Of a stretch of 64,000 nt of DNA, positions 18,805 through 44,405 are shown in pieces. Below the pieces are notes generated by a model. The model was not told where the DNA came from. It did no database searches and saw nothing but the letters and a program-made list of their open reading frames with translations. The DNA is from Flavimarina sp. Hel_I_48 (GTDB lineage: Bacteria; Bacteroidota; Bacteroidia; Flavobacteriales; Flavobacteriaceae), in NCBI RefSeq assembly GCF_000733945.1, contig NZ_JPOL01000002.1, positions 382,001 to 446,000 of the forward strand, written 5' to 3'. Position 1 is the first letter of the stretch. Each line of letters begins with the position of its first letter. Made by a program: the position numbers and the translations under genes.

Positions 18805-18837
18805 TCACTTTTATAGGTCTACCAACTGACACCGAAT
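18797..18837. repeat. Inverted repeat ATTCGGTGTCA upstream of int
   Basis: Perfect 11-bp inverted repeat, ATTCGGTGTCA (18797-18807) and TGACACCGAAT (18827-18837), spacer 19 nt. The core GGTGTCAC recurs at the int start (18925-18932). Looks like binding sites for a recombination or regulatory protein. Confidence 0.65.
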
Positions 18838-18925
18838 TGATGTAAATACTTTGATTTTCAGTGGTTTAAAATGATTTTGATATTAATTTTTTTGAGTACA
18901 TTGTGGAGAATTTAAAACTAAAAAG

Positions 18926-20137
18926 GTGTCACATTCTCTCTCCCTCCTATTCTACATTAAAAAAAGCAAAGCCGATGAGTACGGCAAAGCAAACATATAT
19001 CTACGCATAACCCTAGCCGGCAAAAGGGCTGAGTGCAGTATTCGGCGAAAAGTTGATTATAATAAATGGAATCCCAAAACACAACTTGCACTGGGTAATT
19101 CTATTCAAGCCCAAGAGATCAACAGAGAAATAGGGATTATAAAAGATAAAATCTATTCTCTTCAGCAGCTGTTTCAAAGACAGGAAAAACCCTATACCGC
19201 ACTTGACCTTCGCGACGCCTATTTAGGTAAAGACAAAACGCAGAAAATGCTACTGGATATCTTCCAGGAGCACAATGACAAAGTAGAAAGTCTTATCGGT
19301 AAAGATTTTGCTGCCGGAACTGCCGAACGCTATCGTACCTGTAAAAAACACGTGGCAGCCTTTATAAAACAGAAATACAAGAAGAATGATATTCCTGTAC
19401 AGGAAGTAGATCATAAGTTCATCACAGGGCTGGAATACTACCTAAAAACAACGCGCAAGTGTGCGCACAACTCCGCTATTAAATACATCACCAATTTTAA
19501 AAAAATCATCCGCATAGCGTATGCTAATGATTGGATTGATAAAGATCCATTCTTAAACTGGAAAGCAAAACTCAAAATCGTGGATCGAGAATTCTTAAGT
19601 GAAGAAGAAATCCAAAAAATAATGAATCTGGATTTGAAAATGGAACGCCTGGATCAGGTACGCGATATTTTTATTTTTTGTTGTTTCACCGGCTTGGCCT
19701 ATGCCGATGTGAAGAAATTACATCGCGGAGATATTAGCGTGGGAGCGGATGGCGAGGAATGGGTCAAAACCAAACGAACTAAAACGGACACCCGAAGCAA
19801 TATCCCGATCTTACCCATTGCCAAAACGATTATAGAAAAGTATGAAGATCACGAGCTGCTGAAAGAAAAAGACCTGGTACTACCCGTGCTCAGCAACCAG
19901 AAAATGAATGCGTACATCAAAGAGCTGGCTACCCTGGCAGGAATCACTAAAAACCTAACCTTCCATTTAGCCAGGCATACCTTTGCGACCACGGTTACGC
20001 TTACCAATGGTGTACCTATCGAATCGGTAAGTAAAATGCTCGGGCATACAAATCTTAAAACCACTCAGCACTACGCCAAGATTTTAGATATGAAGGTGAG
20101 TAAGGATATGGCGGTATTAAGGGCAAAGTTTAAGTAG
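18926..20137 (+). CDS. int: Tyrosine recombinase/integrase, IntDOT-like
   Basis: 403-residue site-specific recombinase that should drive integration and excision of the island. N-terminal arm-binding domain (LFYIKKSKADEYGKANIYLRIT), SAM-like core-binding domain (about 105-205) and catalytic domain. Catalytic HLAR (H347, R350), GH (H374) and nucleophile Tyr383 (QHYAKI) are present. The position of Arg-I reads TGLAYADV, without Arg, as in the CTnDOT integrase group. Start codon is GTG 18926, which lies inside a GGTGTCAC motif shared with the upstream inverted repeat, hinting at autoregulation. Not followed by an obvious excisionase. Confidence 0.93.
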   Translation: MSHSLSLLFYIKKSKADEYGKANIYLRITLAGKRAECSIRRKVDYNKWNPKTQLALGNSIQAQEINREIGIIKDKIYSLQQLFQRQEKPYTALDLRDAYLGKDKTQKMLLDIFQEHNDKVESLIGKDFAAGTAERYRTCKKHVAAFIKQKYKKNDIPVQEVDHKFITGLEYYLKTTRKCAHNSAIKYITNFKKIIRIAYANDWIDKDPFLNWKAKLKIVDREFLSEEEIQKIMNLDLKMERLDQVRDIFIFCCFTGLAYADVKKLHRGDISVGADGEEWVKTKRTKTDTRSNIPILPIAKTIIEKYEDHELLKEKDLVLPVLSNQKMNAYIKELATLAGITKNLTFHLARHTFATTVTLTNGVPIESVSKMLGHTNLKTTQHYAKILDMKVSKDMAVLRAKFK

Positions 20138-20264: not shown

Positions 20265-23200
20265 CTAAGCTATTCCAGCATTTTCATTAATTCTATCTAC
20301 GATTGAGATTATCTTCCTTATACTATTTTCTTTACCGTCAAACAGATCTAGGATTCCTCTCTCATAATCCTTTCCAAATGTGGACGAAGAAAGAAGTTTT
20401 TTTTCTATTGTTCCGTTTTCATTTAAATATTCAATGATTTTATTAATGAAGGTAATTTGATCTGCATTTAGGTTTTCATTTTGGATCAATTCACTAAAAA
20501 GCTGATTTGCTACTTTTATATCGAGACCTATAATTTTCCTTATAAACTTACCCAAAGGATCACCCTCTAAGTGACTTTTAAAATCAGTACCTAGTTCACC
20601 ACTAGAAAGAAATTGTTCTAAAGACTGAAGTTCTTTTTCAGTAATCGGTAAATTTTTATACAGCTTATCTATAACCAGATGGTCTTTATTTTTTCGAATA
20701 AAAGTTTCCACTCTATCCTTATAATTCTGCATTCTAGTGTAGGTTGGCATAATATCCCTTTCCTTGATTTCACTATCGTAAATAGTATCTTCAAAATTTG
20801 AATATACCGGATCCAAGGATTGTTTATCCAGAAATTGAATCAAAGATCTAAGGTCTTCCCTCACTTTTTCCAGTTGCACCAAAGTAACCTGTTTCCAAAA
20901 ATCCATATCCTGTACCTGCCTAACGGCAGTAATTTTTGCGGCTACAGCAGGTATGTTTTTTTTCTTCTCCAAACGACTCCCTACATTATATATGCTTTCT
21001 ATATATCGTTGCTGTGAACAATCACCAGCAACCAAAGCAATATGCAATCTGATTACAATTAAATCGAACCGCTTGGCTAGTTCATCTTCATCATCTTTAT
21101 AAGAAGTAAGTTTTGATAGATGCGTTTTTATATCGTTTTCATCTCCTTTATTTAAATTATCCCAAGACTCGCGATCTTTATATCTTTTTACATATTTCCA
21201 GACAGACCTTACTACATATCTCTCCTCATTTAACCTACTTATTATTTGAAATAGGTCATTTGTAAAATTTCGTTCTAAATTCTCCTCTTCAGTACTAGCA
21301 TCAATTTTATTTCTTAGGGATACAACCAGGTCAAGTTTAGCTTCAAAAATTTGCTGCGATAAACTCTTAACTGAATTTGATGTAACCCCATCAGGGAACT
21401 CGTCAAAAAATTCAAAATTTGAGCAGAAGTCAAAAATGACAAAGTGTTCTTTGTGCTCTCCTGGCGCAAATAAATTAGGACGTAACCTTGTACCCCGTCC
21501 AATCATTTGCCAGTATTTTGTATACGATCTTACTCGTTTGAAGAAAACAAGGTTCACCACTCTTGGTGCATCAACACCGGTATCCATCATGTCCACAGAT
21601 ACTGCAACTTGAGGCTCCATCTCTATTTTATCTTCACAAAACATTTCTAAAATATCCTGAGCTTTATCTGCATAATTATCTATGATTCTTAAAAAGCTAC
21701 CGCCATATTCCGGATAGTTTTTGTTAAATCGTTTTTCAATGAATACTGCGTGCTTATGATTTTTTGCAAAAATAATTGTTTTACCAAGCTTATCACCCCC
21801 TTCTACTTTAACACCGTTTTCCATCATATATGCTAATACCTTATCAACAGTATTTTTATTAAAAAGCCAAGTATTCAATTGACCTTTGTCAATCTCCTCC
21901 ATATGAACCTGACCCGTAATAGGATCACCAAAAAGCTCTTCATACTGCCTTTTATCTTTTTCAGACAATTCTTTATATTTCACTCCTTCCAAAGGAAATT
22001 TTATGGGTACCTCAATCGCCCTTGGTGGCACCAAAAATTTATCTGTAACAGCCTGATCTAGCTCATAAGAGAAAGTAGGATTGTCATCCTCAATTTCAAA
22101 TAGAGAATACGTATTCTTGTCAATGTCCTTTTTAGGAGTTGCCGTTAGACCTATTAGAAGACCATCAAAATAATTGAATATAGAACCGTATTTCTGATAT
22201 ACAGATCTATGCGCTTCGTCAATTATAATTAAATCAAAATGCCCTACTCCGTAGTACCTACCGTCGTCAGATTTAAGGCTATCAATCTTATTCATTATGG
22301 TAGGATAGGTAGAAAATACCAGTCTAGTACCTGAATCCTCTTTATCCTTTGTAAGATCAATTGCAGAGAGATGTGGGAGGTGTTCTTTAAAAGCATTTTT
22401 TGCCTGAGTTACCAGGGCATTTCTATCTGCTAAGAAAAGAATCCTTTTTGCCCAATCACTTTTTGTAAGCATATCAACAATTGCGGCCGAAGTTCTAGTT
22501 TTACCACTTCCTGTAGCCATTACCAAAAGTGACTTTCTACTTTTACCCACCAATTTACCATTGCGCTTACCAACAAAATTCTCTGCTACGCGTTGTATAG
22601 CTTCAAGTTGGTATGGCCTTCCGGCTATATTTGTGTTAACCTTAAAATCTCTAATGTCTTTCCTAGTCGTTCTACGGTCTATAAGTAATTGAAGTTCATC
22701 TTGAGTATAGAATCCCTGCACCTCACGATCTGGATAAAAAGTATCATCCCATAGATGTGTCTCAAATCCATTAGAGTAAAAGATAATGGGGCGTTGACCA
22801 AACGTTTCTTCTAAACAATTAGCATATAAATAGGCTTGATGCTTTCCCTTTGCTGCATCGTGCAGCGTATTCTTTGCCTCAACAATCGCTAATGGTAAAC
22901 CATTCTTACTCCATAATACATAATCAACATAACCTAAGCCACTGGGATTTGTTGATAAAGGCATTCCCTTTACCTCAAATTCAAGGTCTTTACCCTTTTT
23001 AAGATCGTCCCAACCCGCTTCCTTAAGGAGTAAATCTATTAATTGACGACGGGTTTCAATTTCGGAGGTTAATAAAGGAATTGCCTCCTCTATATTTTCA
23101 GTTTTCTTGCGCTTTTCCTTTCGCTCCTTTAACTCTTTCTTTGACTTTTCTAATTGTAATTGCAGGAGGTCATTTAGCTTAGCCCTTTCCTGTAGTTTTA

Positions 23201-23705
23201 GCGCTTCTTTTTTAAACTTTTCAAGTTCAGCCTCTAATTCCTCAGTCTTTCTTTTTAAATCCTTTAGAACTTCTGTATTGGCCTCTTCATACTTAAGTAG
23301 CTCCTCGTTAAAAGCGGGAATTTCTGAATTCTCCTCACTATAGTAAATACTTATAAATGAAAGAAACCTAAATAGGTTTTTAATAGCCTGTAGCGACTGG
23401 TATTGGTTTACTTTCTTACCGTGTGCTGCGTTATTTCCTGTTAATCTAATAACATCAAGTTCGCGATGCATAGAGGGCTTTAAAATATCTTTGAATGCCT
23501 GATGATGGAGTAAAGATCCTAATTTGGTATCATAAGGTAACTCAAGATCAACGTCATTTTCATACAACCAGTGAAGGGCTTTTTCTAAAGTCGCTCTGGA
23601 AAGTATTGTCGAATATCGAGGCTCGCGAAAGGTATGTTTTTCCGCATTTGCGGCCTCCTTGTATATCTCTGGAAATTCTTTTTGTAGAAAAGTAAAATTG
23701 CTCAT
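20265..23705 (-). CDS. hsdR: Type I restriction enzyme, HsdR subunit
   Basis: Translocase/nuclease subunit of a type I restriction-modification system (EcoEI/EcoKI-like), 1146 residues. N-terminal ~120 residues resemble DUF4145; a Lys/Glu coiled coil spans about 135-215; the nuclease core has D261 (GYVDYVLW) and E276-A-K278 (AIVEAKN); the motor has Walker A MATGSGKT (396-403), DEAH (496-499), later LIGLTATP and QMIGRGTRLRP; C-terminal EcoEI_R_C-type helical part follows. It needs HsdM/HsdS encoded upstream. Seven nt separate it from the preceding 988-residue gene, so it is last in the run. Confidence 0.95.
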   Translation of the reverse strand: MSNFTFLQKEFPEIYKEAANAEKHTFREPRYSTILSRATLEKALHWLYENDVDLELPYDTKLGSLLHHQAFKDILKPSMHRELDVIRLTGNNAAHGKKVNQYQSLQAIKNLFRFLSFISIYYSEENSEIPAFNEELLKYEEANTEVLKDLKRKTEELEAELEKFKKEALKLQERAKLNDLLQLQLEKSKKELKERKEKRKKTENIEEAIPLLTSEIETRRQLIDLLLKEAGWDDLKKGKDLEFEVKGMPLSTNPSGLGYVDYVLWSKNGLPLAIVEAKNTLHDAAKGKHQAYLYANCLEETFGQRPIIFYSNGFETHLWDDTFYPDREVQGFYTQDELQLLIDRRTTRKDIRDFKVNTNIAGRPYQLEAIQRVAENFVGKRNGKLVGKSRKSLLVMATGSGKTRTSAAIVDMLTKSDWAKRILFLADRNALVTQAKNAFKEHLPHLSAIDLTKDKEDSGTRLVFSTYPTIMNKIDSLKSDDGRYYGVGHFDLIIIDEAHRSVYQKYGSIFNYFDGLLIGLTATPKKDIDKNTYSLFEIEDDNPTFSYELDQAVTDKFLVPPRAIEVPIKFPLEGVKYKELSEKDKRQYEELFGDPITGQVHMEEIDKGQLNTWLFNKNTVDKVLAYMMENGVKVEGGDKLGKTIIFAKNHKHAVFIEKRFNKNYPEYGGSFLRIIDNYADKAQDILEMFCEDKIEMEPQVAVSVDMMDTGVDAPRVVNLVFFKRVRSYTKYWQMIGRGTRLRPNLFAPGEHKEHFVIFDFCSNFEFFDEFPDGVTSNSVKSLSQQIFEAKLDLVVSLRNKIDASTEEENLERNFTNDLFQIISRLNEERYVVRSVWKYVKRYKDRESWDNLNKGDENDIKTHLSKLTSYKDDEDELAKRFDLIVIRLHIALVAGDCSQQRYIESIYNVGSRLEKKKNIPAVAAKITAVRQVQDMDFWKQVTLVQLEKVREDLRSLIQFLDKQSLDPVYSNFEDTIYDSEIKERDIMPTYTRMQNYKDRVETFIRKNKDHLVIDKLYKNLPITEKELQSLEQFLSSGELGTDFKSHLEGDPLGKFIRKIIGLDIKVANQLFSELIQNENLNADQITFINKIIEYLNENGTIEKKLLSSSTFGKDYERGILDLFDGKENSIRKIISIVDRINENAGIA

Positions 23706-23712
23706 TAGGCTC

Positions 23713-26679
23713 TTAATTTGCTAACTGTCTTTTGAATACCTTATCGTGGTAATAAAATATACTTTGCTGCCTTCCATAATCAAACTCATTTAAATCAGTT
23801 ATTTTATAAGAATTATCACAATCCTGTGAAGTACATGAAAAATACTGACTATTTATATTTTCTCTAAATGGCTCAGCAATTAACTGATTGGTTCTAGTAA
23901 TATCATCATAATCTGGCATGTTGAATCCTGATTTGTATAGGTTTTCTAAATGTATTCTATATTTATCATAGGTATAATTTCCTTTATCCCATATAAACCA
24001 CCATTTCCCATCCTTGCGCTGTCCATACTTGGTGATGTTTGAATTCTTATTTTTTTGATCAATAAACCATTTTAGTTGTTTCTTATAAACTGGACCATAT
24101 TGGCTGGACTCCTCCATTTCGCCTCCGCATTTATTACAGCAAAGTATACCTAAATCTTTGTGCCCCTCTATATGGCATTTGTAATCTTGACCTGTTTGAT
24201 TATAAATAAACTCTCTAGCTCGCAATTTTTCTGAACTACAGCAGGCTAAACAATGATTACAAATATACCATCCGCAATTTTCAGAGTATCCTTTTGGTTT
24301 ACATGAGACACAATCTCTACTATCAATAATATCCATACATCTACCATTAATACAGTGCGACAAATAAATTTGATTATGACTTTCCTCGCAATTTTGATTG
24401 CTACAATGAAAACGCGTTACCCTATAAAAAGCATAATTGGAATTGTCTGGGCTATCTATAGGTCTCAATATTGTTTTGCACGATCTACAAGTTAAATGTG
24501 ATAAAAACCTATTTACTCTATTGATTACTCCTAATAGTTTCTCATACTGCTCTAGGCTATAGGAAATCTCCAAAATCTGCATTATATCTTGTAAGCTATA
24601 ATTCCTGTAGCTTATATTTAAATTGACATTTCTAGCAGCTTCATAACATTTGGAATTTTCACACCACCAAAATTCTTTTTCTGATTTATTACAGGTTACA
24701 GGCTTACCTGAGGATTTATCAATAGCTTTACGGCCATCGCAAAAAGTAGCGAATCGAGGTTTCCAGCTATGTTTAAGTTCTGTATTGTACTCTTCTGTAT
24801 CAGAATTATAACTTAATACAGTTCGACCTTGACATTTTTCAAAAAAACCATCGATAACAAGTAGGTCATCCGGTTTTTTGATTTGGTTTGCAATTAAATC
24901 AAAAATAGTTTTTGTCTCTGTGATTTTATTGTTTTTAAGATCACTTAGTAATTGGAGTATTACTGATAAACTAAAATCTAGACCAACATCACCAATCTCC
25001 TTAATGTATTCACTTGTTTGATAATCTATAGTTGTTATACGATTTAAATCGTCTAGTCCTAAATCTAATTTTCCTTCACCGATTAACTTTATTAATTTTT
25101 TAAAAAATACTTTTTGACTAGCGGAATCTAATAAAGCAGTATAAATAACCGCATCATCATACTCGATAGTTTCAGTATAGTCAGCTATAAATAATCTTAA
25201 TTTATACCATTCTGAAGAATTGTTGTGGGCAATTGTAATCAACAATTCCTTTTTCTGCTTATCTATATCTAAATTATCTAGAATGTTTAAAAATTCATGA
25301 AAACGCTGTTCTCTATCAACGATCTCTTCTTTGAGATAAATTAAGGATATTAAATCACGTAGATTCTGAAATGAAAGCTTCTCTAAAATTTCTTCTCTTT
25401 CTGATCTTGTATATATTGCCCTTGGAGCTACATAACTATTATTATTTGACTCCTCCGCTTTGATTTTTTGCAAAAGACTTCTAATAAAATTTAGAGGAGG
25501 GTCGCTAATATGTTCTGACTTCCATAATTGGTATAATCTTTTATCTCCGAGAAGTTCGTAATTTAACTCCTGATCATATTCTTTAGCGAGATCTAAAAAT
25601 TCAATTAGAACACCTAATTCTAAATCATCAGAATTTAGGATTTTTTGGTATATTTCTTCAAATATAATATCAATCTTGGCAGGCTTCAACTTTGATAAAT
25701 ATTCAAAGCTTTTTGAGGGGTTTTTTAAAAAACTCTTTACTAGAAGGTCGGCAAGTTTTGCAAATGGAACATTGATATTGTAATCTTTCCACCATATGTA
25801 CAAATCATCCTTAGGGGAGGTTTCAATTATTCTTGTATTTATTTTTTTAAATGAATTAAGACCACATAATTTTCTAAATTCAATAATAAATCGATATTTA
25901 TAGAAACTGTATTGTTCATTAAATATATACTCTGTGGTTATCTGCCCAACTCTACTCTTAAATTTTTCATCTGGAATAAAAGCTTCAAATAGTTTGAAAA
26001 GCTTGCTAATGTCGGCGCAAAAAGCCGTTGTAATATTTAAATCAGTATCTATTCTAAGAAGAATTGAATCTAAAAAAAATAAATAGTGCTCATTTGAAAA
26101 TTTCGCTCGTAAAACATCTAGATTACCATAAAAGGAATCATGGATCGTACTTCCTATATGATTGTGTAAAGTAGATTGATGATATACTACAATAGTGTAG
26201 AGCATATATTTAATGTCCTTTTCCTGCTCTAAAAGATATACTTTATTTGCTGCTTTTTTATTTTGTATTTTAAAATCTTTTTTTAAAAGCTCTGTAATAA
26301 CAATTCTATTGGGTCTAAGTTCTTCTGCAGAAAAGCCTACAACGTCATTTATGTTGAAATAAACATCTCCCAGTCCATATACTTCAAGAAAACCATATTT
26401 GCCCCCAGTAGCTTTGTTGCCAAACCATTTAACTACAGCGGGTACCCTGTAACATTCATCAATCTCATAAGCGCCAATATTCTTCGCCCTGATTTGCATG
26501 GCTTTTTCGAAAACTCGTTCTCTTGTAATTTTATGATTAACAAGTTCTTTTATTCTATCATACAAAACTGATCCGACATCAGGTTTAGAAACTGACAAAT
26601 CGACTTCCAGAAGTCTGCCGTATTCTTGCAGTTCCTCAAATGATATTCTAAGTTGTTTTAATGCCTCACTTACACGCAT
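23713..26679 (-). CDS. Large unknown protein: cold-shock-like domain plus multiple zinc ribbons, within hsd locus
   Basis: 988 residues, not recognised as a named family. N terminus (MRVSEALKQLRISFEELQEYG) looks like the small helical IF2-N-type module. Residues about 79-150 resemble a cold-shock/OB domain (VVKWFGNKATGGKYGFLEV, then GDVYFNINDVV). The middle is helical. The last third is Cys-rich: sets such as CENSKC, CRSCK, CSNQNC, CINGRC, CVSC, CNHCLACC, CCNKCGG and CTSQDC imply four or more zinc sites. It sits between hsdS and hsdR on the same strand, 7 nt from hsdR. Nucleic-acid binding is inferred from the domains; role in the restriction system is unknown. Confidence 0.8.
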   Translation of the reverse strand: MRVSEALKQLRISFEELQEYGRLLEVDLSVSKPDVGSVLYDRIKELVNHKITRERVFEKAMQIRAKNIGAYEIDECYRVPAVVKWFGNKATGGKYGFLEVYGLGDVYFNINDVVGFSAEELRPNRIVITELLKKDFKIQNKKAANKVYLLEQEKDIKYMLYTIVVYHQSTLHNHIGSTIHDSFYGNLDVLRAKFSNEHYLFFLDSILLRIDTDLNITTAFCADISKLFKLFEAFIPDEKFKSRVGQITTEYIFNEQYSFYKYRFIIEFRKLCGLNSFKKINTRIIETSPKDDLYIWWKDYNINVPFAKLADLLVKSFLKNPSKSFEYLSKLKPAKIDIIFEEIYQKILNSDDLELGVLIEFLDLAKEYDQELNYELLGDKRLYQLWKSEHISDPPLNFIRSLLQKIKAEESNNNSYVAPRAIYTRSEREEILEKLSFQNLRDLISLIYLKEEIVDREQRFHEFLNILDNLDIDKQKKELLITIAHNNSSEWYKLRLFIADYTETIEYDDAVIYTALLDSASQKVFFKKLIKLIGEGKLDLGLDDLNRITTIDYQTSEYIKEIGDVGLDFSLSVILQLLSDLKNNKITETKTIFDLIANQIKKPDDLLVIDGFFEKCQGRTVLSYNSDTEEYNTELKHSWKPRFATFCDGRKAIDKSSGKPVTCNKSEKEFWWCENSKCYEAARNVNLNISYRNYSLQDIMQILEISYSLEQYEKLLGVINRVNRFLSHLTCRSCKTILRPIDSPDNSNYAFYRVTRFHCSNQNCEESHNQIYLSHCINGRCMDIIDSRDCVSCKPKGYSENCGWYICNHCLACCSSEKLRAREFIYNQTGQDYKCHIEGHKDLGILCCNKCGGEMEESSQYGPVYKKQLKWFIDQKNKNSNITKYGQRKDGKWWFIWDKGNYTYDKYRIHLENLYKSGFNMPDYDDITRTNQLIAEPFRENINSQYFSCTSQDCDNSYKITDLNEFDYGRQQSIFYYHDKVFKRQLAN

Positions 26680-26753: not shown

Positions 26754-27917
26754 TCATACCAGTTCTCCTTTAAAAGCTTTTTGTAAGAGGCTATTAAATA
26801 AATTTTCACTTTCTTTTAAAGAATTATCTACTATTTTTTTTTCCTTATCAATTTCATTTAAAATATTCCCGTATTTATTTTGAATTTCAATTGGAGGTAT
26901 TGGAATGACAAATGACTTCACATCTTTCTGATTAATACTAGATTGATTTACGGCATCTTTAGAAGAACTAAGAATTTGATTCTTCATAAATTTCGAACTT
27001 AATATCATTAACATATACTGATTATTAACTTTATTCTGATTGAAAGCTACCCTCATCATATTAGATTCGTAAACAATTTCTTCCGAAATATCTTGAACTA
27101 AACCACATTTCCCCAAATGACTCGGACTATTAACCCTATTTATTACAAAATCCCCTGGCTTAATAAGATATCTTTTTAATTCAGTTTTAGAAACTCTAAC
27201 CCTTTTTAATGCTGTTGTGTCTATGTAATCATTATTAAAGGCATCAATTCTAATGATTAAATTACCAGATCCATAATCTTTAGATGGCTTATACAATCCG
27301 TTTGTAGGACCATCGACTATAACCTTTTCCAAACTAACATATTTCCAACATTTCTTATTAGATCCCGGATCCCCAAACATATCCAAAAACAAACTCTGCC
27401 CCAGATCCTCGTACTTTTTAAGGAGTTGCTTATCAAGCTGGCGTAGTTTGTCTGCTTCATCTAAAATAGCCGCAATTTTTTGTTGGGTTTTTAGGGGAGG
27501 GAGTGTTAACGATATATCTGAAATATGATTAAGCTTTATCCCTTTTACTGTGGCCCCACTAGAAACCGATTCAAAATAATCCTTCTTAGACTTTAGAAAA
27601 TAGAAAAGATATTTTTTATCCAATCCAGATTTACAATAAATAGCTTTTAAATCCTGATTTATAGCAACATCTATTTTTGCAAAAGTAACTTTACCAATAG
27701 CCATTCGAGTTGCGATCAACAATGTGTCCTTTACTATAAGTTTTGAACTACTATTTTTTAAGCCTTCTTCTGTGATATAATCTTTAGAACTGTTCAAAAA
27801 TTCCTCTTTTAAGTCTTTTACACTAACCCAAGGGATATTTCCATTCCAGTAAGACTCATTATTCTTGCTAGGAGTTCCTCCTCCAACTATTTCAATATAA
27901 TTTGATAAAGTCACCAT
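26754..27917 (-). CDS. hsdS: Type I restriction specificity subunit HsdS
   Basis: DNA-recognition subunit, 387 residues, that sets the target sequence for both modification and cleavage. Two target-recognition domains are visible: residues about 1-150 (ending LPPLKTQQKIAAIL) and about 190-365 (ending PIPPIEIQNKYGNIL), each followed by a helical spacer. The start overlaps the hsdM stop (TAATG at 27917), so translation is coupled. Target sequence cannot be predicted. Confidence 0.93.
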   Translation of the reverse strand: MVTLSNYIEIVGGGTPSKNNESYWNGNIPWVSVKDLKEEFLNSSKDYITEEGLKNSSSKLIVKDTLLIATRMAIGKVTFAKIDVAINQDLKAIYCKSGLDKKYLFYFLKSKKDYFESVSSGATVKGIKLNHISDISLTLPPLKTQQKIAAILDEADKLRQLDKQLLKKYEDLGQSLFLDMFGDPGSNKKCWKYVSLEKVIVDGPTNGLYKPSKDYGSGNLIIRIDAFNNDYIDTTALKRVRVSKTELKRYLIKPGDFVINRVNSPSHLGKCGLVQDISEEIVYESNMMRVAFNQNKVNNQYMLMILSSKFMKNQILSSSKDAVNQSSINQKDVKSFVIPIPPIEIQNKYGNILNEIDKEKKIVDNSLKESENLFNSLLQKAFKGELV

Positions 27918-29467
27918 TAACTTAATAGCTTCTCAAGATTCAACAATGCTTTTTGCCGTTGTGCATCCAATTCTTTAATAGACGCGATAAGTTCCAGAGG
28001 CTTTTTATAATCCACCTCTTCATATACAATTTCCTTATACTTATTAATGCTTAGATCATATCCATTCACTTTAATTTCACTTTTAGGCACCAGGAAAGAT
28101 TGAGATGTACGATCTGAGAAATCACCAGTTCCATTTGCTAGTTTTTTCCAATCCAGTAAAACTTCAGGTATATCACATTTGTCTTTAACTTCTTCCAAAG
28201 CTTCTTCTGGATCACTAAAACTCTTTTCTAAGAGTTCTTCATCTATTAAGGCATTACGCTTATCATCAAGGCTATATCCATCTGCCTTCATATCGTAAAA
28301 CCACACCTTATCTGTACCGCCGCTATTGGTCTTGGTAAAAATTAAAATAGCTGTACTTACACCTGCATAAGGTTTAAATACTCCACTAGGTAAAGAAATC
28401 ACACCTTGCAACTGATGTTTTTCTACCAGCTCTTCTCGAATTGCTTTGTGTGCACCACTACTCCCAAATAAGACACCATCAGGTACAATAACAGCTGCAC
28501 GGCCTCCGGTCTTCAGCATTCTAAGCATTAAAGAAAGAAATAAGATTTCGGTCTTCTTTGTTTTGGTTGTTTTAAGCAAACTCGACTCTACCGTATCATA
28601 GTCTAAGCTGCCCTTAAATGGAGGGTTTGCCAAAATAAGCGTATACGCATCATCTATGTCTCCGTTGCTTTTACTCAGCGCATCTTTACCCACTAGTGAG
28701 GGATTCTCTACACCATGTAATTGCAGGTTCATTGCCGCTATACGCAGCATTGAGGCATCAAATTCAGTCCCATTAAACATCTTGGTGTCATAATGATTAC
28801 GAAATGCTTCCTCGGTAAACCATTCGTGATGCTTCTCATATAAATATTCCCCGGCAGAGACCAGGAATCCAGCAGTACCGCAAGCCGGGTCACTTATTAT
28901 ATCATCCTTTTTAGGATCCATCAACTGCACCATCATTCTGATAATATGCTTTGGAGTTCTAAACTGTCCTGCCTTACCGGCTATCGAGAGTTTAGATAAC
29001 ATATACTCATAGATATCCCCTTTTGTATCCCTGCTGTCTAGAGGCAATTTATCTATCTTCTGCACTACTTTATCTAATACCTGAGCTGTTGGAATCATAA
29101 AGGTGGCTCCTTTCATATAGTCAGAAAAAATACCACCTTCTTTACCCACATTTTTCATAAAGTCGAAAACGGTAATACCGCCAAGTTCTTCCTGAAGTCT
29201 GGTAAATAATTCAAACATAACCTCTGGATCTTTATCTTTAAATTGGCTCCAGCGCAGTCCTTTTTGCTTTTTGGTATAGATGGGAGTTTCTATGGCTATA
29301 CCCATAAGGTTCTCCTCTTCTTCCATTTTAAGCTGTTTATCGTCTAACCTTTTTAGAAAAATCAAATAGGTAAATTGCTCAATTACGGTTAGTGGGTTTG
29401 ATACGCCACCCGTCCAGAAATCATTCCAGATCTTGTCTACTTGATTTTTTAAGTCTCCTGTAATCAT
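27917..29467 (-). CDS. hsdM: Type I restriction methyltransferase HsdM
   Basis: N6-adenine methyltransferase subunit, 516 residues. HsdM N-terminal helical domain (about 5-150) then the catalytic domain with AdoMet motif DPACGTAGF (193-201) and catalytic NPPF (281-284). Intact motif IV contrasts with the APPF of the fused HsdM-like protein encoded upstream. 67 bp separate it from the receiver gene. Forms a M2S methylase with HsdS, and with HsdR the full restriction complex. Confidence 0.95.
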   Translation of the reverse strand: MITGDLKNQVDKIWNDFWTGGVSNPLTVIEQFTYLIFLKRLDDKQLKMEEEENLMGIAIETPIYTKKQKGLRWSQFKDKDPEVMFELFTRLQEELGGITVFDFMKNVGKEGGIFSDYMKGATFMIPTAQVLDKVVQKIDKLPLDSRDTKGDIYEYMLSKLSIAGKAGQFRTPKHIIRMMVQLMDPKKDDIISDPACGTAGFLVSAGEYLYEKHHEWFTEEAFRNHYDTKMFNGTEFDASMLRIAAMNLQLHGVENPSLVGKDALSKSNGDIDDAYTLILANPPFKGSLDYDTVESSLLKTTKTKKTEILFLSLMLRMLKTGGRAAVIVPDGVLFGSSGAHKAIREELVEKHQLQGVISLPSGVFKPYAGVSTAILIFTKTNSGGTDKVWFYDMKADGYSLDDKRNALIDEELLEKSFSDPEEALEEVKDKCDIPEVLLDWKKLANGTGDFSDRTSQSFLVPKSEIKVNGYDLSINKYKEIVYEEVDYKKPLELIASIKELDAQRQKALLNLEKLLS

Positions 29468-29534: not shown

Positions 29535-30422
29535 TTACTTTAAATGTGGAAAATTTTGATCCCTAAATTCTACCATCCATTGACAAATCTCTATTAATAA
29601 ATAAAAATTAGATAAAAATGGATATTTAGCGATCTCATCTTCAGAAAGATGTGAATACTGCGATGATGACTCTTTTACTTTTCTAAAAGCTGCTTGGATG
29701 TATTTTGGAATAAAATGATTTAAATATATTTTTTTGTGTTTAATAGGCTTTAGTTCAAAAAATAGAGTGCAATGATCCATTATTGGAGTACCATCATTTT
29801 TTATCAACAGGGGATCATTCGGAATTACAGGTAATGTAGTATTTAAAGCTATATATATTGCTTCAAGAAGATCTCGCTGAGTATTTAAATTCTTTTTTCG
29901 ATAGTCCTTTTTTTGATAAGATTCTATGAGGTCTAATAGCAAGTATTTGTGACTTAAAGACAATATATTTTCGTCAAAAACTAAAAAGCTCTTTGGAAAC
30001 TCTTTTCTGGCTTGAATTTCTTTACGCTTCTCTTGTGCTACAATTATATCTTTGAAAAGACGTTCATTGTCTTGGCCTTTTATGTAAAATTCACCGAAAG
30101 ACTGCTCAAAAATTTCATTACCCATATAATCAGGTTGTCCAGTAAATATGAAATGAGGTAAATAATATTCATTATTGCATTCAATCAAAAAATCCCTAGA
30201 GGCACGTAAACCATTTAAATTAGTAACTGTATCTGATTTCCTTTCTTTTACCTTAGCATCTAAAATTACAGCATGGTAATAATTAGGTTTCACTTTTAAC
30301 TCTTCTATACCTTCTTCGTGCGATTCAAATGGAGTTATATCAATTCCATCATGTTCAGCATCACCAATTAGATCATCCTGCTTTTTGTATTCATCATCTA
30401 TCCAAAGTATTTTATATCTCAT
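29535..30422 (-). CDS. Stand-alone receiver protein with novel C-terminal domain
   Basis: 295 residues. The N-terminal ~120 residues form a response-regulator receiver with all key residues: D9/D10 (WIDDE), phosphoacceptor D55 (AVILDAK), T94 (FIFTGQ) and K115 (FYIKG). No HTH or known output domain follows; residues about 130-295 are mainly helical (LSHKYLLLDLIESYQKK, NFYLLIEICQWMVEFRD) and not recognised. It starts 2 nt after the stop of the HsdM-like/kinase fusion gene, so the two should be a cognate pair. I infer that the C-terminal domain touches the restriction complex or the zinc-ribbon protein rather than DNA. Confidence 0.85.
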   Translation of the reverse strand: MRYKILWIDDEYKKQDDLIGDAEHDGIDITPFESHEEGIEELKVKPNYYHAVILDAKVKERKSDTVTNLNGLRASRDFLIECNNEYYLPHFIFTGQPDYMGNEIFEQSFGEFYIKGQDNERLFKDIIVAQEKRKEIQARKEFPKSFLVFDENILSLSHKYLLLDLIESYQKKDYRKKNLNTQRDLLEAIYIALNTTLPVIPNDPLLIKNDGTPIMDHCTLFFELKPIKHKKIYLNHFIPKYIQAAFRKVKESSSQYSHLSEDEIAKYPFLSNFYLLIEICQWMVEFRDQNFPHLK

Positions 30423-30424
30423 AT

Positions 30425-32995
30425 TTACTTTTCTAAAAGTTCACCAGTATTAGTTATGTCATATAGGGGAAAACGCAATATATAGCTTACCGGGAAAGAA
30501 TTACTATTATCAATTTCTAAATCGAAAACGGCATCAAAATGAGCTAAAATCTCTTTTATATCAGCTCCTCCAAATCCAGTTCCTTCACTGTCTGTTGTTT
30601 TTTCACCACGAGTTACTAATTCTTTTTTCCCAAAACCTTCTGGAAAAGACCACCCATTATTCGAGATAATTATCAAGCACTCTCTCTTTTCTTGATCCAA
30701 AGTTAATGTTGTTTTAATAACATTGCCCTTTCTACCTTTGAAGCCATGCTCTTTTGCGTTTGAAATGATATTAGAGAAAACTCTATAAAACGCTTCCTGA
30801 GAAATTTTTATGTAGGGATTGAAATACCCTAAATCTGATACAAATACTTCTTGATCAACATATAGATCTTCAAGTTTAAATTCATCAGGTTCTTTAAACA
30901 TGTTTTGTGCTTCTTCTATCAAATTTTTGGGTTGTATAAAATCACCCTCAGCATCTGCTAATCTGTCCTCTTTGAGAAGTTTAGACATTGAGTTTATTTT
31001 ACCTTCAAGACTATTGAGATGTTCTCCAAATGTTTGGCTCATATTGTTGCTATAGACAGATTCTAAGGTAATAGGATCACCATTATTACGCTCTATAAAC
31101 TTTCTAGTTCCTGAAACATTAGATTTCAACGCATTCAAATACTGTCGCATAGTATGTCTTATTGATGCAAATTCTCTAAAGGCATCATCTTTCAAACCCA
31201 AGAGTTCCTTTTGCAGTTTCAATTCCTTTTCCCTTGAATTGATAAAAGCTTCTTTAACTGCTTTAATCTTGAGTTTTTGTTTTTCAGGACTCGGTATGAT
31301 AAGCTTGATTCGCTCAAAATCTCGCTTTGAAATAGATTGTTGAGCAACTCCACTTCTGTATGCATTAAGTTGGTCTAAGACCATACTTGAATAAAATTCA
31401 TTAATCAAAAAATCTAAGTCAATATCTTTCTGATTAACCTTATAAGTGAAAATATTATTTGAAACTGCGATAGCCTCCCCATTATATTCAAAGAAAGTAG
31501 GTTTTAGATCATTACCTATTTTAGCAAAGAGCAAACAAGAAGTATCAATAATTTTTGCTCCTTTTAAAGTTTGTACTCTTTCTTCAACATCTTCAATTTT
31601 CAATTTATAATCAAGATTATTTTTTTGAAGATGTTTAATCGATATATATATCATTTCGCGTAAAGGCATTTTACTATGCCCTTTTTTATACTTCAGCACT
31701 TTGCTTAATAGAAAAGTTTCATCTGAAATTTCAGTATCTAAAGTATCTGTTTTAACAAAATATCTCGATGATTGAAGATTGTAGTTTTCAACTTCAATTT
31801 TATGCTGATCTATAGTTATACAGCGTTTGTTTGAATAGGGAGTGGTATATACTTCGGATTCCTCTTGAATTAGATTCTCTGTAATACCTGTGGAACCGTT
31901 TGAATCTGATATAGAATCTAAAGTTTCATACAATTGATTAAAATCGTATTCAGTTTTTCTTCCATCTCCTTTAATAAGATCCGCTGCTTCAATTAAATGA
32001 ACTAAATTATTATTTTTTTTATTCTTGTCTATGACTAAGATTGAAGTTTTCACTCCGCTTGCTCTACCAAGAATACCTGCTGGCAATGATATTATCGTGT
32101 CGATAAGGTTTTGCTTGATTAATTTTTTTCTGATATACTCATCTTTCCCTCCTGCAAATAAGAAACGTTCAGGTACTAGAATTACGAGCTTGCCTTCCTC
32201 ATTCAATGAATTTATTCCCTTATCAATAACAAATTGATCATAACTAAATCCCTTAAATTCACCTAAGTAATATCCAGACGGAATTTTCCCAAAAGGAGGT
32301 GCTGCTATAATAATATCGTAACCCTTTTCATAATTAACTATCCATTCTTTAATAGAATCTCCTTGAACTAATTTACCTGGAAAATTATCTTGAGCGATAA
32401 AACGTAATATACCCATTGCCCATAAATCGTAATTAATTTCCTGACCAAAGTATTCACAATTGGGATTTATCGCTAGACCAAACGATGCCATACCCGCAAA
32501 TGGATTATAAACTCGTTTTTTTTCTTGAACTTTTGCTAAATTGATCATTAGCTTAATTAACTGCTTTGGAAGCATATTTTCACCAGCACTCATTCTATAA
32601 GTTCCGTCATGATACCTCTCTAATAAACCTTCAAACAAATCAGAAAAATGCTTGGTATGTATTTCTTCATCTAAGTGGTTTATATAATTTATTAGATCTG
32701 CGAAAAACTTCCTACCACCTCTTTCTAATATTGGCTCATAAACGACTTCAAAGACCTTTAGCAAATTTCCATGATAGAGTGGGTCTGTTTTATGTCTAAG
32801 AGAGTTTCTTATATCGTCCACATAATCCCATTCAAGATTTGCTCTATTTGGAAGCAAATTTTCCTTTTTTAGGATCAATGCAAAAAAAAGCAGAGGGTAT
32901 ACCTCGGTTTGTGAACCTGCAGTATCTGCACTTAGACTACTTACTACTCGCCATATATCGGCAATATGCTTTTTAACCTGATTTTTGGTCTCCAT
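30425..32995 (-). CDS. HsdM-like/TRD/histidine-kinase fusion protein
   Basis: 856 residues, an unusual architecture. Residues 1-330 follow HsdM: helical N domain, AdoMet-binding motif YNPFAGMASFG (163-173), but motif IV reads AAPPFG (231-236) with Ala in place of the catalytic Asn/Asp. Residues about 430-590 look like one HsdS target-recognition domain (ending QQSISKRDFERIKLIIPSP). A helix pair with SIRHTMRQYL (H614) may be the dimerisation/phosphoacceptor segment, followed by a HATPase: N box SNIISNAKEHG (N746), NNGWSFPEGFG (779-789), GTGFGGADI (805-813). It lacks membrane segments. Reading: a cytosolic, DNA-bound, catalytically dead methylase that signals through a kinase to the adjacent receiver. 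15 nt downstream of the DUF2130 gene. Confidence 0.85.
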   Translation of the reverse strand: METKNQVKKHIADIWRVVSSLSADTAGSQTEVYPLLFFALILKKENLLPNRANLEWDYVDDIRNSLRHKTDPLYHGNLLKVFEVVYEPILERGGRKFFADLINYINHLDEEIHTKHFSDLFEGLLERYHDGTYRMSAGENMLPKQLIKLMINLAKVQEKKRVYNPFAGMASFGLAINPNCEYFGQEINYDLWAMGILRFIAQDNFPGKLVQGDSIKEWIVNYEKGYDIIIAAPPFGKIPSGYYLGEFKGFSYDQFVIDKGINSLNEEGKLVILVPERFLFAGGKDEYIRKKLIKQNLIDTIISLPAGILGRASGVKTSILVIDKNKKNNNLVHLIEAADLIKGDGRKTEYDFNQLYETLDSISDSNGSTGITENLIQEESEVYTTPYSNKRCITIDQHKIEVENYNLQSSRYFVKTDTLDTEISDETFLLSKVLKYKKGHSKMPLREMIYISIKHLQKNNLDYKLKIEDVEERVQTLKGAKIIDTSCLLFAKIGNDLKPTFFEYNGEAIAVSNNIFTYKVNQKDIDLDFLINEFYSSMVLDQLNAYRSGVAQQSISKRDFERIKLIIPSPEKQKLKIKAVKEAFINSREKELKLQKELLGLKDDAFREFASIRHTMRQYLNALKSNVSGTRKFIERNNGDPITLESVYSNNMSQTFGEHLNSLEGKINSMSKLLKEDRLADAEGDFIQPKNLIEEAQNMFKEPDEFKLEDLYVDQEVFVSDLGYFNPYIKISQEAFYRVFSNIISNAKEHGFKGRKGNVIKTTLTLDQEKRECLIIISNNGWSFPEGFGKKELVTRGEKTTDSEGTGFGGADIKEILAHFDAVFDLEIDNSNSFPVSYILRFPLYDITNTGELLEK

Positions 32996-33010: not shown

Positions 33011-34264
33011 CTAGTCTGCTAAATTTTCCTCTTCAAGCTCTGCTATAATTGGTACTGAACTACCTGCAATACCTCTTAAACTCCCATACATTCCGGTAGT
33101 ATTTAGCATCACTTTGTCAATTTGCTTTTGTCTTCGCTTCCATCTACTATGGGCTGCTCGCTGCTCTTTGTTCAAATCATCCTGCATCTCAATAAAAGCA
33201 TCCTTTATAGCTTCTATTTGCATTCTGAATTCTGGACCGGTAAGGTAATCGTATAATAAGGACATTTTATCCCCCTTGTTTGACTGTGTAACTATCGTAT
33301 TATTTACAGCTATTACAGATTGTCTTAGAACTGCACTCAAACTTTTAAACTCCTGAAAAGTACATACCCATAAATTTTTATCAATCATACCCATACGCTC
33401 CATTTCATTGGGTAAAACTTCAGAAACTATAACTCCCAGGGGCGCTCCCTTTTTTGCCATATCTTCTTTAAACTTTGCAATCCAGTTATTAGAGAACGCT
33501 TTGGCTCTTTTACTTTCATAATAAATACTGCCACAGTTTTGATGATCATAAGTATTTACTATCTGTAAACAGTCAGCTCCATTTGCTCCTTTCTTTATTT
33601 CTTCAACAGTATCTAGAGGAAAATTATCTGCAAGCCACTCTTCTATGGCTAATTCCTGCACTTCTCCCTGAAGCTGCATAGAGCCTTGCTCCTGTTTACG
33701 TCGCATATCTTCTGTCAACTTTTTTTGATCTTCTAACTGCTTTATAAGCTCTTTCATCCTAAGCTCATTCTTTTCACTCTCTCGCTTTGATATACGCTCT
33801 CTCTCCTTTATGAGTGACTCATTTAGCTTCTTCTGTCCTTCAGCTTCAAGAGCTTCTTTCATCTCATCTTTCTCTCTTAAAAGTCTCGAAATCTCAGCTT
33901 CTTTTTGATGAAAATCTTTCAATTTTTCACTCTTTTCATTAAGCTCACGCTGAAGGTTTTCTAAGCTATCCCGCTGTTCGTCTTCAAACTGTGCTTTTAG
34001 TTTTTTCGCGATTATCTGTTCTGCCTCCTTTTTCTCTTTATCTAACCTTTCTTTAAACAGCTCATTCTCTTTTTCTTTTTTAGACTCAAATTCTAATTGA
34101 GCTTTAGCTAAAATTTCTTTCTGCTCATTTAATTTTTCGTTGGCCACTTGTTGCTTCAATTGAAATTCAGTTCGCATAGCATTTTCTATTTGATGCTTAA
34201 GAATATCATTTACATTGATTGCGCTTCCGCATTCTGGACATTGAATTGTTGTTTGATCACTCAT
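33011..34264 (-). CDS. DUF2130 coiled-coil protein with zinc knuckle and possible nuclease core
   Basis: 417 residues. N-terminal zinc ribbon start (CPECG, C9/C12), then a long charged coiled coil (about 25-200), then a DUF2130 domain (about 205-330: AIEEWLADNFPLDTVEEIKK, GADCLQIV, GSIYYESKRAKAFSNNWI). The D...ESK pattern is compatible with a PD-(D/E)XK fold. DUF2130 genes are often found near restriction loci; no reaction has been assigned here. First gene of the run after a promoter of its own (34291-34298). Confidence 0.85.
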   Translation of the reverse strand: MSDQTTIQCPECGSAINVNDILKHQIENAMRTEFQLKQQVANEKLNEQKEILAKAQLEFESKKEKENELFKERLDKEKKEAEQIIAKKLKAQFEDEQRDSLENLQRELNEKSEKLKDFHQKEAEISRLLREKDEMKEALEAEGQKKLNESLIKERERISKRESEKNELRMKELIKQLEDQKKLTEDMRRKQEQGSMQLQGEVQELAIEEWLADNFPLDTVEEIKKGANGADCLQIVNTYDHQNCGSIYYESKRAKAFSNNWIAKFKEDMAKKGAPLGVIVSEVLPNEMERMGMIDKNLWVCTFQEFKSLSAVLRQSVIAVNNTIVTQSNKGDKMSLLYDYLTGPEFRMQIEAIKDAFIEMQDDLNKEQRAAHSRWKRRQKQIDKVMLNTTGMYGSLRGIAGSSVPIIAELEEENLAD

Positions 34265-34327: not shown

Positions 34328-35329
34328 TTAATAATTAGCTAAATTTTCATTTAACCTATTCTTTATTTTTTCTTTTAATCCTATTGGTTCTATTACTTTG
34401 AGGGACTCACCAAAAGACAGTATTAATCGCTCCAATTCATAATTAGGAATTACCTCTATAGAGAATGTATAGCCTGATCCGTCATCCACTATCCTTTTTT
34501 GAGATGCGTGTAGAGGTTTAGTTTTAATATAAGGTGCTTGCTGAAGACTTGCCCAAAATTTAATCTTCTGTATATCCCCAGGTTCTTTAGTCACACCTAT
34601 GAAGTCATCAAAATACTCTTGAAAATCTACAGTACTCTCAATATATGATTCCGTCTTCTCAGTTATACCTAAGATTCTATCTAAAGCTAGATTAGTTAAG
34701 TTTTCAAAATCTCCTGACTTACCAAATAAGAACCACCGATTATTATATTCCTTTAAATGCCAAGGATGAAAAACAACCTCTACAGGTTCCGGATTTCTAA
34801 ATGACTGATATTTTATTAGTAGAACTTTCTGATAGAGAATAGCATTGAACAGAGGGTCTATAAATTCAATTCCTTTTAGAAATTCATTGTTATCGAAACT
34901 AATGATATTTTCACTACTGGTAGTTAGACCAAAACTCTGATCTAGTTTAGGTAATATCTCATTTATCCAATTGAATTGTGGTAGACCTTTAAAACGTTTT
35001 AGTATCAATAGTGCAGACTTTAATTGCTCTGCCTCCAACTCATTAATAGGCTGGTTATTAATTGAGAAATCTCTATCCTCATATCGGAAATATGTTTTTC
35101 GCCCTTCTTTATATCTATCTAATTGAATAGACCATCCTTGAGAAGATTCCATAAATCGTATATCCTCATAAAGTTGTCGCTTTTTAATTCCTTCAGTATC
35201 TGGGTTTAGTTCTCGAAGCGCATTATTACAACTCTCTAATAAATCATTTATACAAAAGTTCTTTCCTGGATTTCTAAAACATTGATCCAGGCATTGATAC
35301 CTTATCAATGCATTTCTAGTTATTGGCAT
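34328..35329 (-). CDS. WYL-domain transcriptional regulator
   Basis: 333 residues. N-terminal region (about 1-110) fits a winged-helix DNA-binding part (IKKRQLYEDIRFMESSQGW); the WYL domain covers about 150-240 with the diagnostic VVFHPWHLKEYNNRWFLFG and ALDRI, followed by a C-terminal WCX-like part. WYL regulators commonly control defence loci and are thought to sense nucleotide or nucleic-acid ligands. Immediately upstream of, and on the same strand as, the restriction/signalling run, whose promoter carries a palindrome. Confidence 0.9.
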   Translation of the reverse strand: MPITRNALIRYQCLDQCFRNPGKNFCINDLLESCNNALRELNPDTEGIKKRQLYEDIRFMESSQGWSIQLDRYKEGRKTYFRYEDRDFSINNQPINELEAEQLKSALLILKRFKGLPQFNWINEILPKLDQSFGLTTSSENIISFDNNEFLKGIEFIDPLFNAILYQKVLLIKYQSFRNPEPVEVVFHPWHLKEYNNRWFLFGKSGDFENLTNLALDRILGITEKTESYIESTVDFQEYFDDFIGVTKEPGDIQKIKFWASLQQAPYIKTKPLHASQKRIVDDGSGYTFSIEVIPNYELERLILSFGESLKVIEPIGLKEKIKNRLNENLANY

Positions 35330-43825: not shown

Positions 43826-43854
43826 ATATACTCTTTTATTGGATACAAGTAGTT

Positions 43855-44402: not shown

Positions 44403-44405
44403 AAG

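What the first reader, a model, noticed from the sequence alone, without database searches (positions are those of the whole stretch)
30425..32995. HsdM-like/TRD/histidine-kinase fusion: a possible DNA-methylation-sensing kinase
Seen: one 856-residue cytosolic protein joins an HsdM-type methylase fold, a single HsdS-type target-recognition domain, a His-bearing helix (SIRHTMRQYL) and a HATPase with N and G boxes. Known: HsdM/TRD parts bind specific DNA and AdoMet; HATPases of this kind belong to sensor kinases. Inference: the protein reads the methylation state or presence of its own site (for example unmodified phage DNA) and passes a phosphoryl signal to the receiver encoded 2 nt downstream. 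I know of no described system with this architecture.
Basis: partly seen in the sequence, partly recalled or inferred. Interest (0 to 1): 0.92.

Follow-up and report, generated by a model that had tools for sequence, protein, structure and literature searches.

The report
Restriction-enzyme-derived sensor kinase and partner
A bacterial DNA-methylating restriction enzyme appears to have been turned into the sensing half of a signalling pair: it sits in front of a histidine kinase and next to a matching response regulator, mostly inside restriction gene clusters, so it may be how some bacteria detect foreign DNA or phage attack and pass the alarm on.

Summary

Reading the methylation of its own site is not supported: the window protein lacks the catalytic Asn (APPF), 64 of 135 aligned fusions have no N/D/S there, the TRD is not hypervariable, and it does not resemble the operon's own HsdS. 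I favour a retired methyltransferase-TRD module sensing DNA or a DNA mimic; the ligand is unknown. The regulator's output domain is unassigned (a Schlafen AlbA_2 domain in one locus).

Restriction-linked soluble two-component pairs are already described (HEF_HK/Response_reg_2, 2021). This is a distinct variant with a restriction-derived sensor, not found in print in ten searches.

The parts
30425..32995 (-). Fusion sensor kinase, 856 aa: M fold + one TRD + DHp + CA
32594..32995 (-). N-terminal helical region (residues 1-134), fastest-evolving part
   Evidence: structure match to M subunits from residue 2; median identity of 29 relatives to the window protein 0.18
31751..32593 (-). Methyltransferase fold (residues 135-415): motif I NPFAG, acidic E186, D213; motif IV APPF
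32288..32302 (-). Motif IV, residues 232-236 APPFG; the usual catalytic Asn is Ala
31292..31720 (-). Single HsdS-type TRD (residues 426-568)
   Evidence: Pfam Methylase_S 9e-4, PADLOC Specificity_I 8e-8, structure alignments to single-chain MTases running to residue 568 or beyond
30956..31288 (-). Long helix from the TRD into DHp helix 1, plus DHp helix 2 (residues 570-680)
   Evidence: helices 570-636 and 656-675 in the model; match to WalK, HK853
31154..31156 (-). Codon of H614, the predicted phospho-acceptor; invariant in 135 of 135
   Evidence: aligned to the His of HK853
30461..30928 (-). CA / HATPase domain (residues 690-845); N746, N779, G807, G809 invariant 135 of 135
29535..30422 (-). 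Response regulator, 295 aa, starts 2 nt after the kinase stop
30027..30422 (-). Receiver domain (residues 1-132): D9 D10, D55, T94, K115
29538..30005 (-). All-helical output domain of the regulator (residues 140-295), R183, E187, H258 conserved; fold unassigned
34328..35329 (-). WYL-domain regulator, first gene of the run
   Evidence: WYL gene in 11 of 16 loci
33011..34264 (-). DUF2130 protein between WYL and the kinase; no BLAST match to it in the other 15 loci
27917..29467 (-). HsdM of the operon's own type I system; NPPF intact
26754..27917 (-). HsdS with two TRDs
23713..26679 (-). 988-aa protein of unknown function
20265..23705 (-). HsdR with an N-terminal DUF4145 domain
18926..20137 (+). 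Tyrosine integrase next to a tRNA-Ser (18601-18686): probable island edge

Best explanation
It is a soluble two-component system inside a type I restriction operon. A former M-plus-half-S restriction methyltransferase has become the input domain of a histidine kinase. SHOWN by sequence and structure comparison: the M fold, one TRD, a helix running unbroken from the TRD into the DHp hairpin in the model, the invariant His, a CA domain with invariant N/G-box residues, and a complete receiver next door that diverges in step with the kinase core. INFERRED: the protein is a homodimer through its DHp; the two TRD arms grip DNA or a DNA-like ligand as half-S enzymes with one TRD do (recalled); binding shifts the shared helix; H614 is autophosphorylated; and the phosphoryl group moves to D55 of the regulator. 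The window protein, lacking the catalytic Asn, no longer methylates and acts as a receptor. The regulator's output is probably not transcriptional, since no DNA-binding domain was detected; in one relative it is a Schlafen AlbA_2 domain, and some longer relatives seem to carry an RNA-binding-type OB domain. I expect it to act on nucleic acid or to arm the neighbouring restriction system once foreign DNA or an anti-restriction DNA mimic is met. The ligand itself is not identified.
Against: The acidic residue after the His that HisKA kinases use is Thr here (T in 121, D in 1 of 135), though 5 of 14 sequences have it (L037 E; L004, L052, L053, L056 D). The first N of the NNG G1 box replaces the usual Asp. 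No biochemistry. The output domain has no accepted family match, and its divergence tracks the kinase less well (r 0.23-0.48 in the 39 pairs), so the downstream action is a guess. DNA binding by the TRD was not tested; the M and S likeness is by homology. The DHp region has middling model confidence (block means 64-78 over residues 591-680). 70 of 135 keep N/D/S-P-P and may still methylate; two of the four loci without a recognisable motif I (L004, L052) still read NPP at motif IV. WYL, the more obvious transcription regulator, is in only 11 of 16 loci.
Confidence: 0.62

Rival explanations
1. One reading: the kinase reads whether its own restriction system's site is methylated, and fires on unmodified (phage) DNA.
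For: Motif I, E186 and D213 are kept in the window protein and most of the 135, so AdoMet and a target base could still be bound; it sits beside an intact HsdM/HsdS/HsdR.
Against: Own HsdS is the best match of the fusion TRD in 1 of 10 loci, all matches weak; fusion TRDs do not diversify as HsdS TRDs do; the same kind of RM system is paired with unrelated fusions (L052/L056: HsdM 0.82, fusion MTase part 0.21); in L055 McrB/McrC follow the pair and no HsdM/HsdS was seen, though that contig starts only 297 bases before the fusion.
Confidence: 0.15
2. Guard or decoy: the dead M-TRD surface is bait for phage anti-restriction proteins that mimic DNA (Ocr, ArdA), and the regulator is the alarm effector, in the spirit of PARIS (recalled).
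For: Loss of the catalytic residue with the fold kept; a TRD conserved rather than diversified; attachment to several unlike restriction systems; the Vibrio vulnificus MTase 7eew, first by Foldseek and fourth by Z, was solved with Ocr (title only; its alignment over residues 12-607 has rmsd 23.4, so domains are placed differently).
Against: No direct evidence; a conserved DNA site would explain the same facts.
Confidence: 0.2
3. AdoMet/AdoHcy sensor: the M fold measures cofactor level (e.g. phage AdoMet hydrolase) and signals depletion.
For: Motif I N-P-x-x-G and the motif II acidic residue are nearly invariant in the 135 (N164 134, G168 134, E186 132).
Against: Motif I is not recognisable in L004, L052, L053 and L056 although His, CA and receiver persist (alignment there is uncertain); it does not explain why a TRD is kept.
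Confidence: 0.1
4. Restriction timer: it senses the methylation of host DNA after transfer and holds HsdR back (through the regulator and WYL protein) until the host is protected.
For: WYL gene in 11 of 16 loci; mobile settings: integrase at tRNA-Ser, a Myroides mobilizable plasmid, patchy in its genus, 2 of 13 genomes.
Against: Regulator has no recognisable DNA-binding domain; one output is a Schlafen AlbA_2 domain; McrBC follows the pair in L055 and has no partner methylase to wait for (recalled).
Confidence: 0.15
5. Phospho-regulated methyltransferase: the protein still methylates and the kinase part switches that activity.
For: 70 of 135 keep N/D/S-P-P; 38 of the 135 have N.
Against: The window protein has APPF; 64 of 135 have no N/D/S there; four loci lack a recognisable motif I.
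Confidence: 0.07
6. Not a kinase: a GHKL ATPase machine (MORC/HSP90-like) fused to an MTase.
For: Odd H-box (H-T-x-x-Q) and NNG G1 box.
Confidence: 0.03

Closest known systems
HEF_HK (PF19191) + Response_reg_2 (PF19192) pairs, Bellieny-Rabelo 2021, PMC8011034 (read: outline, text parts 1-3 of 7, sections 9 and 10, passages)
   Same: Soluble histidine-kinase-like protein encoded next to a REC-like protein, tightly linked to restriction-modification genes; function unproven.
   Different: [quoted passage not shown] Here the sensor is HsdM+TRD, neighbours mostly type I, the His is followed by Thr, and neither Pfam model matches. Seven Response_reg_2 proteins fetched here are 525-575 aa and did not align significantly with this regulator.
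Type I MTase subunits (PacII M1M2S, EcoKI M, EcoR124I M) and single-chain MTases with a TRD (7eew, M.TaqI, BseCI)
   Same: M fold and TRD order; best structural matches.
   Different: Catalytic Asn lost in the window protein, one TRD, and a kinase core attached to the TRD helix.
HisKA kinases WalK/YycG, HK853
   Same: DHp hairpin with the His, CA domain, about 200 residues superpose on WalK; sequence profile E 2.5e-10 or better to WalK and 1.1e-11 to HK853.
   Different: No Glu/Asp after the His in the window protein; Gln at H+4; sensor is not PAS/HAMP/membrane.
PorX (Bacteroidota cytosolic response regulator)
   Different: Output is a PglZ phosphodiesterase in PorX (PMC12839542 passage); here an unassigned helical domain.
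Schlafen-family RNase fused to a minimal histidine kinase in BREX loci (PMC12839542, passages only)
   Same: Schlafen and a kinase-like domain in a defence locus; one regulator here is REC+Schlafen AlbA_2 (L055).
   Different: Here arranged as kinase/receiver in two genes, with the M-TRD sensor.
MADS methylation-associated defence (recalled; models in NCBIfam/PADLOC)
   Same: Weak N6-MTase match of the fusion to MAD2 (NCBIfam 6.3e-5, 21.5 bits against a cut-off of 720).
   Different: No kinase core in MAD2 by recall; the operon's ordinary HsdM scores higher to the same model (100.9 bits).

Membership tests
Sensor histidine kinase (DHp + CA) | DHp helix hairpin with phospho-acceptor His | tested here: met
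   [not shown]
Sensor histidine kinase (DHp + CA) | CA domain with N and G boxes | tested here: met
   HATPase_c 1.2e-5 (26.1 bits, cut-off 26.4) and HATPase_c_5 23.3 bits (cut-off 22); N746, N779, G807, G809 135 of 135; G1 Asp is Asn
Sensor histidine kinase (DHp + CA) | Acidic residue directly after the His (HisKA type) | tested here: not met
   Thr in the window; D in 1 of 135; D or E in 5 of 14 aligned. Lowers the claim of HisKA type, not of a kinase
Sensor histidine kinase (DHp + CA) | Autophosphorylation and phosphotransfer | not testable with these tools
   needs biochemistry
Response regulator (REC) | DD, phospho-acceptor D, T/S, K in a (beta-alpha)5 fold | tested here: met
Response regulator (REC) | Match to Pfam Response_reg | tested here: inconclusive
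   3 of 36 members at E up to 5, best 0.07; profile hits a PDB response regulator 3jte at 1.2e-4
HEF_HK / Response_reg_2 system | PF19191 and PF19192 matches | tested here: not met
   no match at E up to 1; 7 of 296 genomes carry PF19192 and none of these 7 is among the 12 fusion genomes
HEF_HK / Response_reg_2 system | N-terminal HATPase_c_3 | tested here: not met
   N-terminus is an M fold
Type I M subunit (HsdM) | Catalytic (N/D)PP(Y/F) | tested here: not met
   APPF; neighbouring HsdMs NPPF/NPPY 9 of 9
Type I M subunit (HsdM) | M fold and AdoMet motifs | tested here: met
   [not shown]
Type I M subunit (HsdM) | HsdM_N Pfam domain | tested here: not met
   absent in the fusion at E up to 1, present in the operon's HsdM at 6.9e-15
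HsdS specificity subunit | Two TRDs and hypervariable recognition | tested here: not met
   one TRD; TRD identity follows MTase identity
HEPN domain (regulator output) | Recognisable HEPN profile | tested here: inconclusive
   HEPN_Apea in 2 of 36 at best E 0.23; hhalign to small DUF4145 and Apea sets not significant

The most novel reading that the evidence does not exclude
A modular, transferable immune relay of Bacteroidota: a retired restriction methyltransferase serves as a pattern receptor for foreign DNA or for phage DNA-mimic inhibitors, fires a histidine kinase, and phospho-activates an effector that attacks nucleic acid (unassigned R/E/H helical domain, OB-fold or Schlafen outputs), sitting on top of whatever restriction system (type I with HsdR or GmrSD, McrBC) is next to it. 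That would be two-component signalling used as the alarm line of restriction.
Probability: 0.25. Interest if true: 0.92.

Novelty: new variant of a known kind. Interest (0 to 1): 0.74.

Why it matters
Histidine kinases are known with many small-molecule and membrane sensors. One whose sensor is a restriction methyltransferase with its TRD would let DNA itself, or a DNA mimic, be the stimulus. It would join restriction, so far seen as recognise-and-cut, to phosphorelay signalling, and give a concrete protein pair in which to ask how restriction systems sense the state of the genome or of an infection. Where these proteins bear a name in the database searched it is 'N-6 DNA methylase', 'type I restriction enzyme M protein' or 'site-specific DNA-methyltransferase', so they are hidden among true methylases.

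Tried and rejected
Plain + strand reading of the coordinates: all stops.

MORC/HSP90-type GHKL: rejected on fold and profile.

HEF_HK/Response_reg_2 membership: rejected.

TRD matching the operon's own HsdS: tested, 1 of 10 own-best, chance level; best bit scores only 20-40, so a weak test.

HEPN identity of the regulator's output domain: I read R183...E187...S257-H258 as HEPN/DUF4145-like, but hhalign against small DUF4145 (4 sequences) and Apea (1 sequence) sets gave E 0.49 and 0.46, worse than the unrelated controls (0.2 and 0.04). Those target sets are tiny, so this is inconclusive. PADLOC gave Csm2 for 5 of 36 regulators (best 1.1e-4); I take this as helical look-alikes, unresolved. The pdb_via list for the regulator model covered only residues 1-136 well, so the output fold was barely tested.

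Virus collections: IMG/VR gave two partial MTase-type matches only. A 'Bacteriophage sp.' record (MT835483.1, flagged UNVERIFIED, human faeces) holds a whole WYL-fusion-receiver-HsdM-HsdS-HsdR run; I think it is probably a bacterial contig. One genome-contig scan with the single protein gave one locus. The window's regulator found nothing in plasmids, although Myroides plasmid pFM-G13 carries a diverged one.

Possible att repeats of the tRNA-Ser region (18601-18800): no exact copy of 14 or more bases elsewhere in the window.

Caveats on counts; 241 of 395 genomes matched at 1e-20; in the rows listed, all but 12 are HsdM-type matches that end before the kinase part (profile positions up to about 470); the 12 are the listed rows that reach position 822 or beyond; only two candidates per genome were scored and not all rows were listed, so 12 is a lower bound. 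The 135-sequence set is of 700 aa or more, and drops P0022 (583 aa), P0031 (too divergent) and fragments such as P0202 and P0231. Of the 15 loci other than the window, 13 receivers were seen by BLAST to the window's receiver at E up to 0.01 and two (L055, L056) by position and receiver residues only.

Full report
WHAT IS THERE. The 856-codon ORF lies on the minus strand at 30425-32995. The run is WYL regulator (34328-35329), DUF2130 (33011-34264), the fusion, a 295-aa protein starting 2 nt later (29535-30422), HsdM, HsdS, a 988-aa unknown, and HsdR, all on the same strand. A tyrosine integrase (18926-20137) beside tRNA-Ser (18601-18686) lies just beyond HsdR, and the operon has 33.3% G+C against 38.2% for the window. 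Only 2 of 13 genomes searched in the genus carry the fusion, the second with segment identities of 30-34%. Together this suggests an acquired island.

WHAT IS CONSERVED AND WHAT IS NOT. In 135 fusions of 700 aa or more (selection in Tried and rejected) H614, N746, N779, G807 and G809 are invariant, while the residue that should be the catalytic Asn of motif IV is N in 38, S 29, A 28 (the window), T 16, F 8, D 4, H 4, I 3, C 2, Q, R and V once each; each of the two following prolines stays in 134. Counting N, D or S followed by PP as still compatible with an amino-methyltransferase (signature recalled), 70 comply, 64 have no N/D/S and 1 has N/D/S without PP. The nine neighbouring HsdMs checked all keep NPPF/NPPY. 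In four more distant loci (L004, L052, L053, L056) motif I is no longer recognisable, yet the His and the CA boxes remain; two of these four (L004, L052) still read NPP at motif IV, and alignment there is uncertain. Overall, selection has kept the kinase and relaxed the methylase chemistry. Against a simple reading, the residue after the His is Thr in 121 of 135 and acidic in one, although five of the 14 sequences aligned have Asp or Glu there; and the first residue of the G1 box is Asn. AgrC-type kinases with Asn there are active (recalled), but activity here is unproven.

THE TRD. HsdS TRDs in the same operons behave as expected: in the seven locus pairs whose HsdMs are 0.55-0.82 identical, the HsdS TRDs share only 0.17-0.30. 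In the fusions the TRD keeps pace with the MTase: for the 144 pairs of 55-65% overall identity the medians are TRD 0.65, MTase 0.60; in the 45 locus pairs the medians are TRD 0.25, MTase 0.24. On those same seven pairs the fusion TRDs share 0.22-0.37, not far above the HsdS TRDs, but their MTase parts share only 0.21-0.42, so the contrast lies in the ratio. The fusion TRD is not closest to its own HsdS (1 of 10, weak matches). L052 and L056 have closely similar HsdMs (0.82) but unrelated fusions (MTase part 0.21). The sensor therefore seems to recognise something that does not change with restriction specificity.

OUTPUT. The regulator's C-terminal part is all helices with R183 (129 of 129), E187 (127) and H258 (129) conserved. 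No library assigns it: Pfam at best HEPN_Apea 0.23 in 2 of 36; PADLOC Csm2 1.1e-4 in 5 of 36; hhalign to small HEPN sets not significant. Longer relatives (about 370-400 aa, 453 in L072) end in what I read as a cold-shock/S1-type OB domain; Pfam supports this weakly (OB_RNB 1.8e-4 and S1CSD-TOTE-2 2.4e-4 in P0179; S1CSD-TOTE-2 in 2 of 36). In L055 the regulator is REC plus Schlafen AlbA_2 (6.4e-15). A nucleic-acid-directed effector is the best guess; no DNA-binding domain was found.

CONTEXT. Directly downstream of the pair in the same direction lie type I genes, at least HsdM, in 11 of 16 loci (L004 with one gene between). Of the rest, L055 has McrB/McrC; L053 an AAA_15 ATPase with PLD-like and UvrD-type genes; L051 has HsdR upstream and HsdM-like pieces about 8 kb downstream; L054 has HsdM/HsdS on the other strand beyond a NACHT gene; in L057 I saw no restriction gene, but scanned only two of its ORFs by Pfam. 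Three of the type I sets carry a pair of GmrSD genes (L049, L050, L052). A WYL gene is within reach in 11 of 16 loci. The pair behaves as a module added to varied restriction systems.

MECHANISM. The helix that leaves the TRD in HsdS-like proteins packs against its partner, and half-S enzymes with one TRD work as dimers (recalled). Here that helix runs on into DHp. A DHp dimer with two M-TRD arms would see a two-part, palindromic target, and clamping or release would twist the helix pair, which is how DHp kinases are switched (recalled). I rate the kinase-receiver pairing at about 0.85, DNA or a DNA mimic as ligand at about 0.5, and methylation readout of the own site at about 0.15.

LITERATURE. 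Ten searches listed no paper that I recognised as an account of an HsdM/TRD-histidine-kinase fusion; most listings were seen as titles and abstract starts only. Nearest is PMC8011034 (outline, text parts 1-3 of 7, sections 9 and 10 and passages read): HEF_HK/Response_reg_2, 91.6% linkage over 644 regions, restriction-linked, with mostly a paraMORC-type sensor. PMC12839542, PMC7641849 and PMC13092281 were seen as passages only; the last has a figure legend listing HATPase and REC among predicted defence domains, which I could not inspect. The library lacks most subscription papers and preprints, so absence is only within it.

VERDICT. Real, recurrent and undescribed in what I could search: a new variant of the restriction-linked two-component kind, with a restriction-derived sensor.

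Noticed in passing
window 18601-20137: tRNA-Ser followed by a tyrosine integrase next to HsdR: probable left edge of an integrated island carrying the operon; no exact copy (14 bases or more) of the stretch 18601-18800 elsewhere in the window.
   Followed up: partly
window 23713-26679: 988-aa protein inside the operon with no significant Pfam match; by eye it carries a cold-shock-like stretch (VVKWFGNK...GKYGFLEV). No BLAST match in the other 15 loci.
   Followed up: partly
window 33011-34264: DUF2130 protein between WYL and the kinase, seen in none of the other 15 loci by BLAST.
   Followed up: no
window 44406-47573: 1055-aa Eco57I/TaqI_C-type single-chain methylase, a second modification enzyme about 9 kb beyond the WYL gene.
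   Followed up: no
window 43238-45918: Arrays of 56-58 nt direct repeats and relatives (CTTCTCGATAC...CACTCGAAGTGACA) just downstream of the 1055-aa methylase gene, with further related copies inside its reading frame (45828-45918).
   Followed up: no
window 38056-39197: Two small overlapping minus-strand ORFs without Pfam match that look to me like mobilization/replication genes of a Bacteroidota element (by eye only).
   Followed up: no
L055 2438-9080: Response regulator whose output is a Schlafen AlbA_2 domain, followed by McrB/McrC-type genes and a reverse transcriptase gene.
   Followed up: partly
L054 4445-7327: NACHT-domain ATPase between a type I RM cluster and the kinase-regulator pair.
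   Followed up: no
L072 (MT835483.1 7227-27440): A record named Bacteriophage sp. (flagged UNVERIFIED) holds a complete WYL-kinase-regulator-HsdM-HsdS-HsdR run; probably a bacterial contig.
   Followed up: partly
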